A stretch of DNA of 64,000 bases. It comes from Armatimonadota bacterium. GTDB lineage: Bacteria > Armatimonadota > Zipacnadia > UBA1398 > JAKPQA01. The stretch is from assembly GCA_029547025.1 (NCBI GenBank), contig JAKPQA010000100.1, positions 1 to 64,000 on the forward strand. Direction: 5' to 3'. Each line of letters starts with the position of its first letter. The first letter of the stretch is position 1. Of this stretch, positions 37,784-46,871 are shown piece by piece. The notes under the pieces are model-generated. The model ran no database searches. It had not been told where the DNA came from and was given only the letters and a program-made list of their open reading frames with translations. The translations under genes were made by a program, and so were the position numbers.

Positions 37784-38137
37784 GGTCGATCCCTCCCACA
37801 TTCTCGATATGCCGCTTCGCGCGGCGCACCTACAAGACGGCGGCGATGCCCGCGGATTCCGTCCCATTTTGCAGTGCCGGGTCGGAGCCGAGTGCCGCCG
37901 CCCCCCAGGGTCATCTCGCTCTCGAGCGTGGGCCGGGTGGTCACCGCGAATGGACGGCGCCGCCCGCCACTCCGGGGGAACCTGCGCATCGGTAGGCGGC
38001 CCTGTCGCTTCCCGGGCGCTTTTCCGGGAGGCGATAGGGGATGGGGTATACTTCCGGCGAACTTCGAGGGGATCCGCACCCGCTTGGGCGGGGTGGATTC
38101 GCGGAGAGGACCAGGGCCGCTGGGCGGCGGATGTGCC
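37784..38137. other. Divergent intergenic region before the ychF-mreD run
   Basis: About 350 bases between divergent genes. TATACT at 38047-38052 is a good -10 hexamer about 85 bases before the YchF-like start, but no -35 at proper spacing is clear. No gene is supported. Confidence 0.35.
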
Positions 38138-39193
38138 GTGCGCATAGGGCTGGTGGGTCTACCGGGTAGTGGGAAGACAACTATCTTCAACCTTCTGACG
38201 GGTCTGAAGAAGGACCTGGACGGCTCGACCCACGGGAGGACCGAGCCCAACGTGGGTGTGCTGAAGGTACCGGATCCCCGTCTGGAGCGTCTCGCCGAGA
38301 TCACCGAGAGCAAACGCAAGGTTCAGGCCGAGGTGGCCCTGGTGGATGTGTTGGGCGCGCGGCCGTCCCGGGGCGCCAGCGGCCTGGGGGCGGAGGACGT
38401 CGCCCGTCATGTCGAGGACGCCGATGCGTTCTGCGTGGTGATCGGTGCCTTCGCGGTAGATGGTCCTGGCGCGGTGGCTCAGCTGGAGGACGTGTTGCTG
38501 AGCCTGGCCCTGGCAGACCTGGCCAAGGTCGAGCGCCGGCTGGAACGTGTCCTGCGGGACATCCAGCGAGGCAAGAAGGAAGGGGAACGGGAGCGGGCAC
38601 TCCTCGAGCACGTCCGGGCACCCCTGGAGGCAGGCGTCGGGCTGGCGAAGGCGCTCCCCGCGGAGCGTGACCGGGTAGAGCTCCGAGGGTTCCAGTTCCT
38701 GTCGGCCAAGCCGGTCGCCGTGCTGGAGAACGTCCGTGATGACGACGCGGGCACCGACGGAGCGCTGGCCGACGTCTGCCGGCTACAGAGGTATCCGCAC
38801 ACGGTGGTTGCAGGACGGCTCGAGCTGGAGATCGCCGAGCTGCCGCCCGAGGAGCAGCTCGGCTTTCTGTCCGAGTACGGCATACGGTCCTCGGCCCGGG
38901 AGCGCTGCATCTCCTCGGTGTACGAGGCGCTCGACGCGGTCACGTTCTACACCATAGCGCACGGTGAGGCGAGAGCGTGGCCTGTGCGGTCGGGCACGGT
39001 AGCGCTCGATGCGGCGGGAGCTGTTCACTCGGACATGAAGGCGGGTTTCATCCGGGCGGAGGTGATCCCTTTCGACGTGCTCGCCGAGGTGGGTTCGCTC
39101 GCCGAATGCCGGGCCCGGGGCGTGGTTCGCCTCGAGGGCCGTGACCACGTCGTTCACGATGGGGACATCATCACGTTCCGGTTCAGCTCATAG
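38138..39193 (+). CDS. YchF/Obg-type NTPase paralogue with TGS domain
   Basis: The 351-residue protein starts at a GTG. P-loop IGLVGLPGSGKTTIFNLLTG, then TEPNVGVLKVPDPRLERLAEI. The G3 region is altered (VDVLGARPSRGAS for the usual VDIAGLVKGAS) and the base-recognition region reads LSAKPVAVLENV. The C-terminal TGS half matches YchF well (FYTIAHGEARAWPVRSGT, AGAVHSDMKAGFIRAEVIPFD, GRDHVVHDGDII). It is divergent from canonical YchF and may be a second paralogue. It leads the plus-strand run to mreD. Confidence 0.85.
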   Translation: MRIGLVGLPGSGKTTIFNLLTGLKKDLDGSTHGRTEPNVGVLKVPDPRLERLAEITESKRKVQAEVALVDVLGARPSRGASGLGAEDVARHVEDADAFCVVIGAFAVDGPGAVAQLEDVLLSLALADLAKVERRLERVLRDIQRGKKEGERERALLEHVRAPLEAGVGLAKALPAERDRVELRGFQFLSAKPVAVLENVRDDDAGTDGALADVCRLQRYPHTVVAGRLELEIAELPPEEQLGFLSEYGIRSSARERCISSVYEALDAVTFYTIAHGEARAWPVRSGTVALDAAGAVHSDMKAGFIRAEVIPFDVLAEVGSLAECRARGVVRLEGRDHVVHDGDIITFRFSS

Positions 39194-39251: not shown

Positions 39252-40496
39252 ATGGGAGTGACTTCATGGACGTGGCGACCATTGCCCAGCGTCGGGTCGG
39301 GTCCACCGCGGGGTCGCCGGGCGCTCATCGCGTTCTCTCTTCTGCTGGGCACGAGCTGGTGGGTCGGATGTGCGCGGTCGGGGTCGGGCGGGGCCACTCA
39401 CGAGCAGGAGCATGGCGCACCGGCGTCGGCGCACACAGGAGAGGGCACCGCGGCGCTGCCCCCGGGAACCGTCACCGAGCCGTTTGACGGCCAGGAGCTT
39501 GCGGCGGATCAACTCCTGCTCCTGAGGACGTCGCGAGGCGACTTGTACATCGAGGTGGACGCGCGCGAGTGTCCGGTGGGCGCTTCGCATTTCGTTCGCT
39601 TGGCGCGCGAGGGCTATCTGGCGGGCCGCATGTTCGACCGGGCGGTGCGCGGCCGGTCGGTACACGCCGGCGCGAAGCCCGAGGGGGCGAAGCTGAAGGA
39701 CCCTGACTGGAGGATCGTTGCTGAGCGATCCCCACAGCGGGCGCTCCGGGGCTACGTGTTCCTGGATCGCGATGCGTCATCCCCGGAGCTCGCAGAGGCG
39801 GTGGGCTTCCGGATTCTCCGGGCGCGGGACGTGCTCTTGGAGGACGGGGAGCAGTCCCAGGGCGGGATCCCCATGTCCTATGTGGGGAGAGTGGTGAAGG
39901 GGCTGGCGGTGGTGGACGCAATCGAGGAGGGCGACACCATCCAAGCCGTGAGCGTGGTCACTCGTCAGGCCATGGGTAAGCCGGACGCCGGCAGGATGCT
40001 CTTGGATCCGGGTGCATCGCGCACCACGCTGGCGACGCCGAAAGCCGTGTCGCCTGAGTGGCGGCTGCGCACGATGGACGGGCAGGAGTACTCGGCGGAC
40101 TCCACCTTGGGGCGCGCCCTGGTGCTCACGTTCGTCGAGTCGGGCAACAAGGCGTCCGAGGCGCTGATGGACGCCCTGCAGGAGATCCGAGACCGTGTGG
40201 CCGAGACCGATCTGCTGATCCTGGTGGTGGCGCCCGTCGATCAGGACGAGAACGCTCTGAGAGCTTGGGCGAAGCGGGGCGGATGGACCCTACCACTGGT
40301 CTCGGGCCGATCGCCGCGAGTTCTGGACGTCACCGCCTCGTTCATGGCGGACCAGGTACCGCTGACGTGGATCGTGGACTCGACAGGGGTGGCGGTCGAG
40401 AAGATCGCCGGCGGCCATCCGGCGCCGGTGTTGCTGGCAAGATTGGAGCTCGTGGGCGTCCGAGCCCGGGACGCCACACGAGCGCCGGGCCGGTGA
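39252..40496 (+). CDS. Lipoprotein: cyclophilin-like plus thioredoxin-like domains
   Basis: The 414-residue protein from the ATG at 39252 has a hydrophobic N-terminus ending in WWVGCARSG, a plausible lipobox. Residues about 85-240 resemble a cyclophilin (LLRTSRGDLYIEVDARECPVGASHFVRLAREGYLAG), but the catalytic Arg/Phe/Gln pattern is not evident. Residues about 290-400 resemble an AhpC/TlpA thioredoxin fold (LVLTFVESGNKASEALMDAL) lacking the CxxC. Both enzymatic centres look lost; a structural or chaperone role in the envelope is inferred. Confidence 0.6.
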   Translation: MGVTSWTWRPLPSVGSGPPRGRRALIAFSLLLGTSWWVGCARSGSGGATHEQEHGAPASAHTGEGTAALPPGTVTEPFDGQELAADQLLLLRTSRGDLYIEVDARECPVGASHFVRLAREGYLAGRMFDRAVRGRSVHAGAKPEGAKLKDPDWRIVAERSPQRALRGYVFLDRDASSPELAEAVGFRILRARDVLLEDGEQSQGGIPMSYVGRVVKGLAVVDAIEEGDTIQAVSVVTRQAMGKPDAGRMLLDPGASRTTLATPKAVSPEWRLRTMDGQEYSADSTLGRALVLTFVESGNKASEALMDALQEIRDRVAETDLLILVVAPVDQDENALRAWAKRGGWTLPLVSGRSPRVLDVTASFMADQVPLTWIVDSTGVAVEKIAGGHPAPVLLARLELVGVRARDATRAPGR

Positions 40497-40581: not shown

Positions 40582-43500
40582 ATGATGCAGGAGCTCTCAG
40601 AGCTACTCAAGCGCAACCGTGGTGCGATGAACCGCGTGGTCTTGTTCGTGGGAAGCGGCATGGCGCTCAAGCCGCATCGGAAGACGAACGAGGACATCGC
40701 GGTAGAGGCGTGCATACGGTATGCCGAAAGCCAGGGAATCAGGCTTCCGGAGGCAATGCCCGAGAGGCAGGAGGCGGCCTACGACGCCGTGGACGCGGCC
40801 CACCTCTCGCCGGCGGCTCTGTCGGAGCTTGTGTTGCCCCTGGTGGAGGATCTGCAGGTCGGCGAGGGGCACCTCCGTCTGGCTCGCCTGACCAAGGAGC
40901 GTTACTTCAGCACCATCTTCACCATGTGCTTCGATGACCTGCTCGAGCGCGCGCTGGCACAGGAGCACCTTCTTCCGGTGGAGCAGTACAACCTGGTGGT
41001 GGTCGGGAAGGCGACGCGCCGGGAGATCACGGGCGCGCTGATGGAGTCACAGCGGCTAACCGTGGTCAAACTCCCCGGGAGCGCCAAAGATGGGCCGGCA
41101 CTGACGCCCCGGCAGGTGAGCTCGTACCTGCGCCGGGCCAGCCACATCGTGCATGAGCTTTCGAAGCAATGCACATTGGTCGTGTCGTACTGTGCGCGGG
41201 ATCGTGCCCTGATGCCGATCATTGCGCGCGAGGGCGACGCGCTGTGGTGGATCAACCCGCAGTACCCCATGAGCGACCGTGATGCCTACGACAACCTGCG
41301 GATCGAGCAGCCCGACCAGCTTCAGCACCATGCGTTCCAGCCCGAAGTCGTGGAGCTGCTGCGAAGCCGCCGGAGCGAGCGGCATGTCATCAGCCGGGAG
41401 CAGGGCACATTCGACGGGTTCTTCGCCGAGCTGTACGACCGGCGGGTGCGGCGGGGTTCGGACCGCCACCTGGATGTGCGCCGGACCGATTTGAAGATGG
41501 AGCCCGAGGGACCCTTCAAGTTCCTCGATCACTATGAGGCCAAGGACGCGAGCATCTTCTTCGGCCGCGATGACGACACCCGCCGGATGCGCGACCTGAT
41601 CGATGCTCATCGTGTGAGTGTTCTGTTCGGCCGCTCAGGGACGGGCAAGACCTCGCTGATCCACGCGGGTCTGGTGCCTCCACTCGAGGAAGAGGGCGCC
41701 CTCGCCATCACCACCCGGGTGCTCGACGAACCGGCGACCCGCATCACCGACGAGCTGCAGAAACATCCCGCGGTGCCTGAGGGACTCCTGGGAGAGCCGA
41801 AGATACCGCTGGCCGAGGCGATCCGCGCGGTTCGCGAGGCAACCGGACGTCAGATCGTGATCTTCCTCGACCAGTTCGAGGAGTTCTTTGCCCGACTGGG
41901 CGAGCGGGTGCGAGAGAGTTTCGTCCAGGAGCTGGCCGGGTGTCTCGCGTGCGAGGATCTGGACACGCGCTGGGTGATCAGCATCCGCGAGGACTTCTTC
42001 GGCGAGCTGTACGAGCTGACTGAGAGCATTCCGCATATCCTGCATGCCGTGTACCGCTTGCGCCGCTTCGCCCCGTCTCAGGCGCGGCAAGCGATTGTGA
42101 AGCCGGCGGCGAAGTTCGAGCTGAAGTTCGAGGAAGCGCTGATCGAGCGGATCCTCGAGGACCTTCACACCGACGAGGGCATCGGCCCGGCCCAGCTCCA
42201 GATCGTGTGCTACCGGTTGGTCGAGCAGCTGGGCCCGCGGCGGCGCGGAGTCAAGCTCAAGGACTACGAGACACTGGGTCAGGCTGAGGGCATCCTCAAG
42301 GATCATCTCAACTATGTCATCCAGCAGTTCGCTTGGCGCGAGCGGGACGCGGCCCGCACTGTGCTCAAGGAGCTCGTGCGGTCGATGCAGATGAAGGCCC
42401 CGCTGCCCATCAAGAAGATCTGCTCGGACCTCAACATCGACCGCGACCGCGTGGAACGGATTCTGTGGCAGCTCACGGACTACCGGCTCGTGCGCCGCCT
42501 CGGCGACGAGCACGAGCGGCAGTATGAGCTGGTGCATGAGTATCTGGCCGACGAGATCCATGGGTGGATGACCGACGAAGAGCTGGAGGCCAAGGACGCC
42601 CAGGACCTGATGGCGCGAGAGCTCAACGACTGGCGCGAGTTCGAGGTGCTCATGCGCCGCGAGTCCCTGAAGGCACTGCACGAGCATCGGATGACGTTGC
42701 GCACCACACCCGAGGAGCTCGAGCTGATCCTGCTCAGCGCGGCGGAACAGGACTTTGAGACCGACTACTGGCTCCCAAGGTCCAAGGAGCTGCGTCACCG
42801 AGAGGTCCGATTCCTACGTCGCATCCTGTCGTCGGGACGAGCCAAGGTCCGTCGGTACGCGGTCGAGCGGCTGGAGGCGCTGAACACACCCGAAGCACTC
42901 GACGCGCTCCTGGATGCGTTGCCCCAGGCTTCGGCCGACGAGGCCGCGGTGATCGCGGGTGCCCTGGAGAAGCGCGCGGGCGAGCTCGTGGAGGCCATGT
43001 CATCGAGCGACACCCACATCCGCACGCGCGCCGCGTACGCCCTCGGCCAGATCGGCAACGAGGTCGCCATCCGCGGCCTGGTCGACGTGCTGGCACGGGG
43101 GGAGCCGTTGGCGGCTCTGCGATCGGCGGCCGTGGAGGGGCTCCGCACCACGGGGTTCCGCGCCATGGCCCGAGGCCAACAGGCGGTGACCGATGCCTTG
43201 GTCGCGTCACACCGGCGGCGGGCCGATGATGAGGCCAACTGGCTCCGAGCGGAGGCCCTCGCGGGGCTGGTTGCGGGAGAAGCGTCGCTCAAGCAGCTCG
43301 CCGATGCCGCCGAGACGCGGGGGCGCGTGCCGCATCTGCGCTATGCCCTGGGTCGCGTGTACTACGACCAGAAGCGCCTGGCCGAAGCCCGGGAGCAGCT
43401 GGATCGCCTTCGCGCGGACTTCCCCGACGTCAGTGATCATGAGGCCGTCTCCCGCCTGTTGCGAGCGGTCGGCACGCTGGAGAATGAGCTGCGGGAGGGC

Positions 43501-44595
43501 CGGTACCGCTGGGCCATGTTCCGCAAGGGCCCCGACCATGCGGCGTGGACGCCGGAGACGCTCAGCACCCACCTGACTTTGCGATGGTCGGTGCGCACTG
43601 ACGGTCAGGTGGTGAGCTCGGCCGCGGTCGACGCGGGACTGGTGTATTCAGGGTCCAGGGATGGACGGTTCCGTGCGCTGCATCTGCGCAATGGTTCCGT
43701 GGAGTGGCAGGTGGATGTTGGGGCCCGGATCGAGTCCACACCGGCGGTCGCTGATGGCAAGGTGGTCTTCGGCGCCAACGATGGCGGGCTGTACTGCCAC
43801 GAGGCGCGCACCGGCATGCCGGTGTGGACGTACCGGGCCGGTGGCGAGATCCGGGCGTCGCCGACCATCTGCGACGGCCGGGTGTACGTCGGATCGTGGG
43901 ACCGCCAGCTGCACTCCGTGGACCTGGAGACGGGCGAGCGTCTCTGGGCGACTCCAACGGGTGGTGAGATTCTGGCGAGTGCCGCCGTGGCCGATTATGT
44001 CTATGCGCCCTCGTGGGACGGCCGGCTTTACGCGCTCGATCCCAAGACCGGTGAGGTGGTCTTCGCGGTCTCGACAGAGGGTGAGCTGCACTCCTCGCCG
44101 GCATACGCCGATGGCTGTGTGGTCTTCGGGTCGGACGCGGCCACCGTGCACTGCGTGGATGCCCGGACGGGTGAGCCGCGATGGGTGTGCGACGCCGGAG
44201 GACCGGTCCGGTCCTCTCCCGCCATCGCCGACGGTGTCGCGTATGTGGGGGGCGGCGATGGCGTGCTGCGCGGTCTCGATCTTGCCGGGGGCAGCGTGGT
44301 ATTCGAGTTCCGAACAGGCGACGGGATCCAGTCGTCGCCGGCCATCGCCGACACGATTCTCGTGGTGGGCTCTCGCGACGGCGGGCTCTACCTGGTGGAT
44401 CGGCGGACCGGTGAGTGCCTCTGGTCGGCGATGACGAGCTACGCGGTGACCGCATCCCCGGCCATCGCGGACGGGTACGTGGTGTCCGCCATTGACTACT
44501 ACTATATCGCGGCCTTCGGGCCCGGAAACCCGGAGGAGACTTCGGGCGGCAGCTCGCTCAACCTCCGGCAGGGGGCCCAGCGCGCCGATGGATAG
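40582..44595 (+). CDS. SIR2-like / STAND NTPase / HEAT / PQQ-propeller protein
   Basis: The 1337-residue protein has four parts. Residues 15-290 resemble SIR2 (LFVGSGMAL near 22; FTMCFDDLLERAL near 113; VVKLPGS near 162; LVVSYCARDRALMPII near 199), but the catalytic Asn and His are replaced. Residues 320-700 are a STAND NTPase (FFGRDDDTRRM; Walker A FGRSGTGKTSLIHAGL near 349; Walker B IVIFLDQFEEFF near 427) with a helical/winged-helix region. Residues about 745-930 are HEAT-like (VRRYAVERLEALNTPEALD). Residues about 990-1325 form eight PQQ-type blades (SSPAIADG, GGLY, RTGE motifs). It lies 15 bases before mreC. Confidence 0.85.
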   Translation: MMQELSELLKRNRGAMNRVVLFVGSGMALKPHRKTNEDIAVEACIRYAESQGIRLPEAMPERQEAAYDAVDAAHLSPAALSELVLPLVEDLQVGEGHLRLARLTKERYFSTIFTMCFDDLLERALAQEHLLPVEQYNLVVVGKATRREITGALMESQRLTVVKLPGSAKDGPALTPRQVSSYLRRASHIVHELSKQCTLVVSYCARDRALMPIIAREGDALWWINPQYPMSDRDAYDNLRIEQPDQLQHHAFQPEVVELLRSRRSERHVISREQGTFDGFFAELYDRRVRRGSDRHLDVRRTDLKMEPEGPFKFLDHYEAKDASIFFGRDDDTRRMRDLIDAHRVSVLFGRSGTGKTSLIHAGLVPPLEEEGALAITTRVLDEPATRITDELQKHPAVPEGLLGEPKIPLAEAIRAVREATGRQIVIFLDQFEEFFARLGERVRESFVQELAGCLACEDLDTRWVISIREDFFGELYELTESIPHILHAVYRLRRFAPSQARQAIVKPAAKFELKFEEALIERILEDLHTDEGIGPAQLQIVCYRLVEQLGPRRRGVKLKDYETLGQAEGILKDHLNYVIQQFAWRERDAARTVLKELVRSMQMKAPLPIKKICSDLNIDRDRVERILWQLTDYRLVRRLGDEHERQYELVHEYLADEIHGWMTDEELEAKDAQDLMARELNDWREFEVLMRRESLKALHEHRMTLRTTPEELELILLSAAEQDFETDYWLPRSKELRHREVRFLRRILSSGRAKVRRYAVERLEALNTPEALDALLDALPQASADEAAVIAGALEKRAGELVEAMSSSDTHIRTRAAYALGQIGNEVAIRGLVDVLARGEPLAALRSAAVEGLRTTGFRAMARGQQAVTDALVASHRRRADDEANWLRAEALAGLVAGEASLKQLADAAETRGRVPHLRYALGRVYYDQKRLAEAREQLDRLRADFPDVSDHEAVSRLLRAVGTLENELREGRYRWAMFRKGPDHAAWTPETLSTHLTLRWSVRTDGQVVSSAAVDAGLVYSGSRDGRFRALHLRNGSVEWQVDVGARIESTPAVADGKVVFGANDGGLYCHEARTGMPVWTYRAGGEIRASPTICDGRVYVGSWDRQLHSVDLETGERLWATPTGGEILASAAVADYVYAPSWDGRLYALDPKTGEVVFAVSTEGELHSSPAYADGCVVFGSDAATVHCVDARTGEPRWVCDAGGPVRSSPAIADGVAYVGGGDGVLRGLDLAGGSVVFEFRTGDGIQSSPAIADTILVVGSRDGGLYLVDRRTGECLWSAMTSYAVTASPAIADGYVVSAIDYYYIAAFGPGNPEETSGGSSLNLRQGAQRADG

Positions 44596-44610: not shown

Positions 44611-45489
44611 ATGAGTAGCCGGATACCTCTGGGGATCGGAGCCCCGTCCCGTCCGTCGCGCCTGCGGCGGGGCGCCACCGCTCTGCTGCTGGCTCTGGCG
44701 GTCACGGCAGTGGGACTGCTGGTGAGTCGGCCTTCGTCACCCATGGGTGCCCCTGCGGCTAACCTGGTCACGCGGCAGCGCTCGCTGATTGCCCAGGTGG
44801 CAGGCCTTCGAGCCGAGCAGTTCCTCGAGCAGGAACTCCTCCGCGAGGGAGTGCGCTTTCGGCGGCTCCAGGAGCTGGGGGCGGGCTTGAGGCGTCGCGG
44901 GCTGTCCTTCGTGGCGGCACAGGTTGTCGTGAACGATCCGGCGACTTCTCGTGTGACACTGGGTCGCGGATCCCAGAGCGGCGTGGGGCATCGTGACGTG
45001 GTGGTGGCTCCCGAGGGCCTGGTGGGCCGTGTGGTGACTGTGAATGAGACCACGTGCACCGCGGCCCTGCTGACGGATCCGAGTGTGGGCGTACCCGTGG
45101 TGGTTGCCGCCCACGAGCCCGTCGGCGCCGCGAATGCCTCTCCCGACACGGGCGGTAACGGAGAAGGGGGCTTACCCCGCTCCCAGGAGCTCCATGCCAT
45201 TGTAACCGGCAGTCGGCCCAACGGCCCGCTGGTGCTCGGGTACCTGAGCAGTGGCGCGTCGTTACGTGCCGGCGATCCCGTGCTGACGTCGGGGATCGGC
45301 GAGATCTACCCGCCGGGCCTTCGGGTCGGCGTGGTGCTCGCGGAGCAGGCCCGGCGGCCAGGGGTGCCCGAGCAGGCCCTGGTTCGACCTCTGGTCGAGT
45401 GGCAGAAGCTGCGCGAAGTGCTGATCGTTCGCCGTCCAGTGCGTGGCGCGTGCGGAAGGGGAACGGTCGCGCATGATCTTCCGGCGTGA
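44611..45489 (+). CDS. mreC: MreC-like cell-shape protein, copy 1
   Basis: The 292-residue protein has one N-terminal membrane span (ATALLLALAVTAVGLLVSR), a coiled-coil region (RQRSLIAQVAGLRAEQFLEQELL) and MreC-type beta domains (GRGSQSGVGHRDVVVAPEGLVGRVV, LRAGDPVLTSGIGEIYPPGL). In the periplasm MreC helps position the cell-wall elongation complex. It is followed by a second MreC-like gene overlapping by 17 bases, then mreD. The ribosome binding site is weak. Confidence 0.8.
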   Translation: MSSRIPLGIGAPSRPSRLRRGATALLLALAVTAVGLLVSRPSSPMGAPAANLVTRQRSLIAQVAGLRAEQFLEQELLREGVRFRRLQELGAGLRRRGLSFVAAQVVVNDPATSRVTLGRGSQSGVGHRDVVVAPEGLVGRVVTVNETTCTAALLTDPSVGVPVVVAAHEPVGAANASPDTGGNGEGGLPRSQELHAIVTGSRPNGPLVLGYLSSGASLRAGDPVLTSGIGEIYPPGLRVGVVLAEQARRPGVPEQALVRPLVEWQKLREVLIVRRPVRGACGRGTVAHDLPA

Positions 45490-46348
45490 TCCTGAGCGAC
45501 GGCGCCGGACGATACTCGCGCTGTTGCTGGTTGGGTCGGCAGGAGCAGGTTGGAACCATCGGACTGGCGACGTCTCACCGGCGCTGACCGTGTGGGAGCG
45601 GGCCGGTGCCGTGGCCCAGGACTGGGTCGGACAAGAGGCGGCAGCGCGGTCTGCGCGCCGCGTCTCCGACGCGGTCACGAGCGTAGTCAGTGCCCGTAGG
45701 CTATCGCTCCAGAACGATCGTCTCGCGGCACAGACGGACCTGCTGCGTCGCCAGAACGCCCTCTTGCGGCAGTCAGACATCGCACCGGTGCCGCTTCTCG
45801 GCCTCGAGATCCAGGCGACTCGCCTTCGGGAACTCACGTCCACCGCCACGCGAGCCCTGGTGATCGGGCGCGGCCCTGACCAGTGGGCAGATGCGCTGAT
45901 CCTCAACGTGGGCTCGGGCAGCGGGGTGCGCGCTGGCGATGTGGTGGTCTCGGGTCCGGATCTGGTCGGTGTCATCGCCCGCGTGTACTGGGGAACCTGC
46001 GTCGTTCGGCTGGTCACCGATCGCTACGCGCGGCTGCCCGCCCGCTGTGCCCGGTCCCAGGAGAGTCTGGGGATGGCCACGGGGACCTCGCGAGGACTGC
46101 TCCAACTGCGCGATCTGCCACTCTCCTCGGACCTGCGCGAGGGCGACCTTGTCTGCACCGCGGGCCTGGGCGCCTCGATCCCCGGAGGCCTGCTACTCGG
46201 CCGGGTCGACACCTATCACCAGATCGCGGTGCTGGACCCGGCGACGGGCACGCGGCGGCCTCGAGCTCGAGCCACGGTGCGGCCCCTCACGGACGCCCTC
46301 TCGCTCAGTTCGGTCTGGGTGATCCGGCTCGGCGCGGGAGGCGATTGA
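45473..46348 (+). CDS. mreC: MreC-like cell-shape protein, copy 2
   Basis: The 291-residue protein from the ATG at 45473 overlaps copy 1 by 17 bases. It has a short hydrophobic N-terminus (RRTILALLLVGSAGAGW), a coiled coil (RRLSLQNDRLAAQTDLLRRQNALLRQ), then MreC beta barrels (LNVGSGSGVRAGDVVVSGPDLVGVIARV, LREGDLVCTAGLGASIPGGLLLGRV). The coiled coil is longer and closer to canonical MreC than copy 1. It may form a heteromer with copy 1 (inference). Confidence 0.85.
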   Translation: MIFRRDPERRRRTILALLLVGSAGAGWNHRTGDVSPALTVWERAGAVAQDWVGQEAAARSARRVSDAVTSVVSARRLSLQNDRLAAQTDLLRRQNALLRQSDIAPVPLLGLEIQATRLRELTSTATRALVIGRGPDQWADALILNVGSGSGVRAGDVVVSGPDLVGVIARVYWGTCVVRLVTDRYARLPARCARSQESLGMATGTSRGLLQLRDLPLSSDLREGDLVCTAGLGASIPGGLLLGRVDTYHQIAVLDPATGTRRPRARATVRPLTDALSLSSVWVIRLGAGGD

Positions 46349-46349
46349 G

Positions 46350-46871
46350 GTGCTCCTGCGGATCGCGCTGGGGCTGTACGCCATCGCCTTGTGTGCGTGG
46401 GAACCGGGCCTGGGGGCGGCCTTCCCGGTTCTGGGCGCCCGCCCCCATCTTGACCTCGTCATCATCACATCCATTGGGCTTCTGCTGGGTCAGGAAGACG
46501 GCGCGGTCGCGGGCTTCCTGTGTGGGATGCTCGAGGTGGCGCATACCGCGGGGCCGGGGGGAGGCGCCTTCGTGGCCTCGCGAGTACTCGTCGGTTACGC
46601 CGCCGGCAGTGCGAGCCACAGCCTCTTCGCCCGCAGCCTCCTGGTCCCCGTTTCGTGCACGGCGGTGGCCACCGTCGGGGCCGAGGTCGTACGCTTCATC
46701 CTGGCGCCTTACCCGGACCTCTCGACTTGGGCACGGCTTGTGCTGGTGCAGTCGATCTACAACGGCGCACTGGCAGTGGCCATCCATCCGGTGGCCGCGT
46801 GGCTGTCGCGGCGCCTGCCCTCGCGGCCGCGCGCCCCCCGCCAGGCCATCAACCGGCCCCGAGCCATCTGA
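46350..46871 (+). CDS. mreD: MreD-like cell-shape membrane protein
   Basis: The 173-residue protein has four to five hydrophobic segments and MreD-like features: GARPHLDLVIITSIGLLLGQEDGAVAGFLCGML, and the YNGALAVAIHPVAAWLSRRL ending. The GTG start is one base after the mreC stop, behind GGGAGG. Its last 23 bases overlap the convergent gene on the minus strand. No mreB, pbp2 or rodA lies in the window. Confidence 0.85.
   Translation: MLLRIALGLYAIALCAWEPGLGAAFPVLGARPHLDLVIITSIGLLLGQEDGAVAGFLCGMLEVAHTAGPGGGAFVASRVLVGYAAGSASHSLFARSLLVPVSCTAVATVGAEVVRFILAPYPDLSTWARLVLVQSIYNGALAVAIHPVAAWLSRRLPSRPRAPRQAINRPRAI

What the first reader, a model, noticed from the sequence alone, without database searches (positions are those of the whole stretch)
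40582..44595. SIR2-like/STAND/HEAT/propeller protein of 1337 residues
STAND NTPases joined to an N-terminal effector and C-terminal repeat sensor are typical of antiviral or cell-death systems (Avs-like). Here a SIR2-like N-terminus is combined with HEAT-like repeats and an eight-bladed PQQ-type propeller, an architecture I do not know as a described defence protein. It may recognise a phage or envelope ligand through the propeller.
Basis: partly seen in the sequence, partly recalled or inferred. Interest (0 to 1): 0.82.

Follow-up and report, generated by a model that had tools for sequence, protein, structure and literature searches.

The report
Core NLR-like ATPase with dead sirtuin
A large protein built like a bacterial immune receptor (sirtuin-like head, ATP-driven switch, repeat-and-propeller tail) turns out to be a permanent, inherited core gene of a whole bacterial class whose sirtuin head has lost its catalytic residues, so it is more likely a resident signalling switch than a suicide defence enzyme.

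Summary
The 1337-residue ORF at 40582-44595 (+) is real. The defence/NADase reading is not supported. The catalytic Asn and His are absent in 44 of 44 covered copies, while the Walker A lysine and Walker B aspartate are kept. The gene occurs in 46 of 46 genomes of the class, almost always single-copy; its tree keeps every family intact; neighbours are housekeeping genes. The dead SIR2 domain is the best conserved domain and under purifying selection. A sister class (5 of 5 genomes) carries the same STAND-HEAT/TPR protein with an HD-CE-like N-terminus instead; a propeller is seen in 4 of those 5. Best explanation: an NLR-like protein fixed as a core cytosolic signalling switch, working through binding or assembly of the N-terminal domain, not NAD hydrolysis. 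Ligand and output are unknown. New variant of a known kind (SIR2-STAND/nSTAND1).

The parts
40582..44595 (+). whole gene, 1337 aa: SIR2-like / nSTAND1 / HEAT-TPR / eight-bladed propeller protein
40582..41472 (+). SIR2-fold N-terminal domain (residues 1-297)
   Evidence: AlphaFold pLDDT 93.9; Foldseek/VIA top rows SIR2 NADases
40921..40935 (+). degenerate TTNxD motif, here TMCFD (residues 114-118): catalytic Asn replaced by Cys116
   Evidence: alignment to intact SIR2s L081, L082 by the same profile; motif and essential Asn from PMC12931631 section 11
41068..41079 (+). degenerate HG motif, here KLPG (residues 163-166): catalytic His replaced by Pro165
41512..42624 (+). nSTAND1 NTPase with winged-helix region (residues 311-681)
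   Evidence: Pfam PF20703 E=1.1e-54
41629..41655 (+). Walker A (GRSGTGKTS, residues 350-358)
   Evidence: K356 in 45 of 45 covered class copies and 4 of 4 covered sister copies
41854..41883 (+). Walker B (IVIFLDQFEE, residues 425-434)
   Evidence: D430 in 46 of 46 class copies
42658..43494 (+). helical solenoid, HEAT then TPR-like (residues about 693-971)
   Evidence: 16 helices in the model; Pfam HEAT_2 and TPR_19
43573..44523 (+). eight-bladed PQQ/BamB-type propeller (residues about 998-1314)
38099..39193 (+). neighbour: YchF-like GTPase with C-terminal domain (true start not determined)
   Evidence: Pfam YchF-GTPase_C 1.1e-27
39306..40496 (+). neighbour: cyclophilin-type PPIase plus weak AhpC/TSA match (start approximate)
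44611..45489 (+). neighbour, 15 bp downstream: first MreC
   Evidence: Pfam MreC 3.5e-28
45443..46348 (+). neighbour: second MreC in tandem
   Evidence: Pfam MreC 4.5e-29
46350..46871 (+). neighbour: possible MreD
   Evidence: Pfam MreD E=0.0091, below cut-off

Best explanation
It is a vertically inherited, cytosolic signalling ATPase of the STAND type, an NLR-like protein fixed as a core gene in its class. Shown here: the domain anatomy; retained ATPase residues; loss of both SIR2 catalytic residues in every covered copy; near-universal single-copy presence; congruent inheritance; purifying selection on the dead SIR2 domain. Inferred: the HEAT/TPR solenoid and propeller bind an internal partner or ligand; binding lets the STAND core exchange ADP for ATP and oligomerise; the N-terminal SIR2-fold domain then works by binding or assembly (ligand pocket or filament-type contacts, as in other SIR2-fold defence proteins) rather than by cleaving NAD. 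The output is probably regulatory and housekeeping (metabolism or envelope), since the neighbours are a membrane-anchored TPR protein, aspartate aminotransferase and isocitrate dehydrogenase in most of the class, and mreC-mreC in the window's order.
For: Presence: 46 of 46 class genomes, 22 of 22 high-quality ones; the N-terminal domain profile matches this gene in 45 of 46 class genomes, the 46th being cut by a contig end. This gene is the only nSTAND1 in 44 of 46 genomes; G027 and G032 have a second (the two G045 rows are pieces of this gene). Catalysis: site 116 is E23 D10 S4 G3 C2 A1 T1, never Asn; site 165 is G23 A12 C4 L4 P1, never His or Asn; n=44, 2 of 46 not covered; the same profile puts TTN and LHG at these sites in two intact SIR2s. 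ATPase kept. The SIR2-like domain has the highest mean pairwise identity, 0.471 (STAND 0.460, propeller 0.419), and dN/dS 0.06-0.21 in 12 same-genus pairs. Tree: 10 families need 9 changes, the minimum. Synteny: the TPR gene follows in 39 of 39 covered genomes outside the window's order and has an N-terminal hydrophobic or lipobox segment in 37 of 38 (the 38th is a mis-hit). No SIR2-STAND relative on plasmids, phages or viral contigs, only STAND matches.
Against: No experiment and no known ligand or output. Loss of residues is not proof of lost activity: Avs5 shows that the HG motif can be NG (PMC12931631, section 11), though Asn at the first site is essential there and is absent here. Three copies look interrupted (in-frame TAG in G016 and G035, frame break in G045), which could be assembly error or decay. 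The gene is not found throughout the phylum, so it is not a phylum-wide core gene.
Confidence: 0.6

Rival explanations
1. Active SIR2-STAND antiphage protein of the Avs5 kind: the propeller/repeats sense a phage product and the SIR2 domain depletes NAD.
For: Same order of modules as Avs5 (SIR2, STAND, C-terminal repeats); SIR2 fold match to Avs5 9jap Z 14.7 and 9nc9 Z 13.6; nSTAND1 was named from conflict systems (PMC8195603 passages).
Against: Catalytic Asn and His absent in 44 of 44; universal and vertical; housekeeping neighbours; PADLOC gives only weak partial matches for it (best 6.9e-5) against 2.7e-187 for a genuine SIR2 protein, L081.
Confidence: 0.08
2. A fixed immune sensor: still senses invaders, but uses the SIR2-fold domain as a non-enzymatic assembly scaffold that recruits or activates separate effectors.
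For: STAND plus repeat sensor architecture; SIR2-fold defence proteins form filaments (titles of 8bto, 8zsf, 9jap); the N-terminal domain is exchanged between classes, as effector domains are in conflict systems.
Against: No effector genes recognised next to it (no PADLOC hit at E<=0.001 for 5 window neighbours); sensor domains under purifying selection and almost no copy-number variation.
Confidence: 0.2
3. The SIR2-fold domain has a new catalytic activity based on the acidic residue that replaces Asn (E or D in 33 of 44).
For: E23 + D10 of 44 at site 116; strong constraint on the domain.
Against: The site is C, G, S, A or T in 11 of 44, including the window, and the His site varies freely; no fixed new catalytic pair.
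Confidence: 0.08

Closest known systems
Avs5 (AVAST type 5, SIR2-STAND; PMC12931631, abstract and section 11 read)
   Same: N-terminal SIR2 fold, central STAND ATPase, C-terminal repeat sensor
   Different: Avs5 needs TTNXD and HG/NG for NAD hydrolysis; here both sites are lost, a propeller is added, and the gene is core and vertical
nSTAND1 clade (Pfam PF20703; named in PMC8195603, passages read)
   Same: ATPase domain belongs to it, E=1.1e-54
   Different: Described members sit in diverse conflict systems; this one is fixed through a class with one architecture
SAMD9 family (PMC5445408, passages read)
   Same: Variant SIR2-like domain, then STAND-like NTPase, then TPR repeats
   Different: SAMD9 has AlbA_2 and OB-fold domains, not found here, and no propeller is named for it in the passages read
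DSR2 and ThsA SIR2 NADases
   Same: SIR2 fold (VIA Z about 15 and 17)
   Different: No STAND domain (recalled); catalytic residues present in those enzymes
Ser/Thr kinase with PQQ-type propeller (AfsK-like; found in the same class, L110, L111)
   Same: Same kind of TPR/propeller tail attached to a signalling head
   Different: Kinase head in place of SIR2-STAND
LypABC CARD-NLR-like system of Caulobacter (PMC13236601, abstract and outline read)
   Same: Precedent for an immune-type system with an ATPase used for host physiology
   Different: Three-gene system with peptidase domains; different head domains

Membership tests
Avs5 / SIR2-STAND NADase defence | N-terminal SIR2 fold | tested here: met
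Avs5 / SIR2-STAND NADase defence | TTNXD motif with catalytic Asn | tested here: not met
   0 of 44 covered copies have Asn
Avs5 / SIR2-STAND NADase defence | HG or NG motif | tested here: not met
   0 of 44 have His or Asn
Avs5 / SIR2-STAND NADase defence | GAGXS motif | tested here: not met
   window has GSGMA; G24 kept in 43 of 43 covered copies, the next position is not Ala (S38 H3 Q1 G1)
Avs5 / SIR2-STAND NADase defence | STAND ATPase with intact Walker A and B | tested here: met
Avs5 / SIR2-STAND NADase defence | patchy distribution of a defence gene (general expectation, recalled) | tested here: not met
   46 of 46 class genomes, tree congruent with families
Avs5 / SIR2-STAND NADase defence | protects against phage | not testable with these tools
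   needs experiment
nSTAND1 (PF20703) | match to the family model over its cut-off | tested here: met
   186.9 bits against cut-off 27.1
SAMD9 family | AlbA_2 and OB-fold domains flanking SIR2-STAND-TPR | tested here: not met
   no such Pfam match among the 25 listed at E<=1; the N-terminus is the SIR2 fold and the C-terminus a propeller
BamB | lipoprotein propeller reaching the BamB model cut-off | tested here: not met
   155.7 bits against 285.2; no N-terminal hydrophobic segment
DSR2 | SIR2 plus helical repeats, catalytic His | tested here: not met
   STAND domain present, His absent

The most novel reading that the evidence does not exclude
A STAND switch whose exchangeable N-terminal reader has been turned from an NAD-destroying effector into a sensor: the dead sirtuin binds NAD(H), ADP-ribose or a related nucleotide without cutting it and gates the ATPase, reporting the redox or energy state to metabolism or envelope growth. 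It would be an immune receptor domesticated into a core metabolic sensor of a whole class, with the sister class using an HD-CE-like reader on the same chassis.
Probability: 0.2. Interest if true: 0.82.

Novelty: new variant of a known kind. Interest (0 to 1): 0.62.

Why it matters
SIR2-STAND and nSTAND proteins are read almost by reflex as phage-triggered suicide systems. Here one such architecture is a fixed, vertically inherited core gene with a conserved but catalytically dead sirtuin. That warns against calling defence from domain content alone, gives a natural test of what NLR-like machines do outside immunity, and offers a pseudo-sirtuin under strong selection whose ligand can be looked for directly.

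Tried and rejected
Rejected: 'N-terminal fold is not SIR2' (sequence profiles were weak, but the models settle it). Rejected: a propeller of another blade number (eight blades). Rejected: mobile or phage-borne gene (plasmids 150 records, none covering 80% of residues 1-720, and all 15 rows shown start at residue 275 or later, 135 rows not listed; phages 2 weak STAND matches; viral contigs none). A profile search of PDB sequences with the N-terminal alignment gave only ThsA at E=0.23, too weak alone.

Led nowhere: naming the organism. The phylum search covered all 291 held genomes and the wider set 397; other phyla were reached only through the 106 genomes beyond those 291, one genome-contig scan (9 loci, STAND matches only) and plasmids, so absence elsewhere is not shown.

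Mistakes corrected: the rows L136 and L137 were the wrong open frames, so that alignment and tree are void; one search repeats them with the right frames. In one search the G039 row is a mis-hit to the STAND frame. One search's simple ORF caller missed or mis-called genes in this high-GC DNA; (tblastn) replaces it for neighbour counts.

Not in print, as far as searched: (open-licence PubMed Central only) showed no paper on this SIR2-like/nSTAND1/HEAT/propeller protein; I read only listings, abstracts, passages and one section.
Full report
Observation. The frame 40582-44595 (+) encodes 1337 residues without a stop. Pfam finds nSTAND1 (311-681, 1.1e-54), HEAT_2, TPR_19 and PQQ/BamB-type propeller repeats; SIR2_2 is sub-threshold (0.024). 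PADLOC gives only weak partial SIR2 matches (best 6.9e-5, residues 95-202).

Structure. With 21 class sequences (A2), residues 1-306 fold with pLDDT 93.9 and pTM 0.90. Foldseek and VIA top rows are SIR2 NADases of defence systems: SPARSA 8y80 Z 20.4, ThsA Z 17, KomC Z 16.5, DSR2 Z 15.7, Avs5 9jap Z 14.7, then classical sirtuins Z about 13.5. Residues 690-1337 fold with pLDDT 90.0 and pTM 0.74: 16 helices followed by eight blades; Foldseek matches Cake8 (TMt 0.95), Tako8 and BamB.

The SIR2 domain is degenerate. The Avs5 paper names GAGXS, TTNXD and HG (or NG) as the motifs and shows that the Asn is essential there (PMC12931631 section 11). I aligned all 46 class genomes with the A2 profile. 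In 44 of 46 the sites are covered: Asn site E23 D10 S4 G3 C2 A1 T1; His site G23 A12 C4 L4 P1. No copy has Asn at the first site or His at the second. The window reads TMCFD and KLPG. Two proteins found by the same profile, L081 and L082, carry TTNFD and LHG, and L081 matches a PADLOC candidate-defence model at 2.7e-187, so the alignment register is sound. The ATPase by contrast is intact: K356 in 45 of 45 covered, D430 in 46 of 46.

It is a core gene. 46 of 46 held class genomes have it, 22 of 22 of the high-quality ones. The N-terminal domain profile hits this gene in 45 of 46 class genomes (G020 is cut by a contig end; G031 and G033 are partial) and, among the 245 other genomes of the phylum, gives one weak match, an intact SIR2; it also gives a second weak match within the class, the intact SIR2 of G017, and one more weak match in the 397-genome set. 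In 44 of 46 genomes it is the only nSTAND1; two have a second. SIR2_2 matches outside this gene occur in only 12 of 46 (13 genomes match, G002 through this gene). The gene tree of 46 needs 9 changes for 10 families, the minimum (quick tree, no bootstrap). Three copies look interrupted: in-frame TAG in G016 and G035 and a frame break in G045.

Selection. Mean pairwise identity is highest in the dead SIR2 domain, 0.471, then STAND 0.460, residues 682-750 0.424, propeller 0.419, HEAT 0.349, TPR/linker 0.319; dN/dS in the SIR2-like domain is 0.06-0.21 over 12 chosen same-genus pairs, with dS near saturation in several. The domain is used, though not, it seems, as an enzyme.

Neighbours. In families f3, f4, f6, f7 and f10 dnaG and rpoD lie upstream in nearly all copies where the contig reaches (not in G013); in f8 they do not. 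Downstream a TPR gene follows in 39 of 39 covered genomes outside the window's order, 4 being cut off, and usually aspartate aminotransferase and isocitrate dehydrogenase after it. The TPR protein has a hydrophobic or lipobox N-terminus in 37 of 38 (the 38th is a mis-hit). In the window's order (3 genomes) the context is ychF upstream and mreC downstream, with a PPIase between ychF and the gene in the window and a weak PPIase match in one of the other two. Five window neighbours have no PADLOC hit at E<=0.001.

Sister class. The STAND-HEAT part (A3) is found at E<1e-100 in all 5 genomes of a second class. Four of these five sequences continue into the propeller (L135-L138); the fifth, L139, ends at the propeller's start. 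The four with an N-terminus have an HD-CE-like domain in place of SIR2 (Pfam 4e-9 for L135; 0.0029 and 0.036, below cut-off, for L137 and L136; L139 by alignment only). In L135 the HD residues are degenerate, in the other three an HD pair is present. On the STAND-to-propeller tree the two classes separate with support 100 (quick tree). So the chassis is shared and the head differs between the two classes; the simplest account is one exchange.

How it most likely works. Shown: parts, residues, distribution, selection. Inferred from what is known of STAND proteins (recalled): the solenoid and propeller bind a partner, the STAND core switches with ATP, the SIR2-fold head acts by binding or assembly. 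The same kind of propeller tail on a Ser/Thr kinase in the same class (L110, L111) supports a signalling role. What it senses is unknown; the nucleotide-sensor version is the novel case.

Known kinds. By function it resembles STAND switches in general. It is a member of nSTAND1 by the family cut-off. It is not filed as Avs5, DSR2, SAMD9 or BamB because defining features were tested and not met. Six paper searches showed nothing on this architecture; only open-licence papers were searched.

Noticed in passing
L050:5533-7671, L052:14783-16963(-), L054:11007-13085(-), L056:11474-13552(-), L060:11251-13359(-), L064:5322-7385: RpoD (sigma-70 with regions 1.1, 1.2, 2, 3, 4) carries two or three Big_5 Ig-like stretches between regions 1.2 and 2, in 6 of 6 tested class members.
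   Followed up: partly
L110:63-2345, L111:131-2455 and similar rows: A Ser/Thr kinase of about 760-780 aa ending in a PQQ-type propeller like that of the STAND protein.
   Followed up: partly
L135-L139: Sister-class orthologues with an HD-CE-like N-terminus instead of SIR2; HD residues degenerate in L135.
   Followed up: partly
window 44611-46348: Two mreC genes in tandem, overlapping by 47 bases, followed by a weak mreD match.
   Followed up: no
L081:1738-3480: Intact SIR2 protein matching PADLOC candidate system PDC-S65 at 2.7e-187, in another class of the same phylum.
   Followed up: no
L082:590-2443: Intact SIR2 plus repeat-rich protein in class member G017, on another contig than the core gene.
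   Followed up: no
G016, G035, G045 copies: Three of 46 copies appear interrupted by a TAG or a frame break; assembly error or decay not resolved.
   Followed up: no
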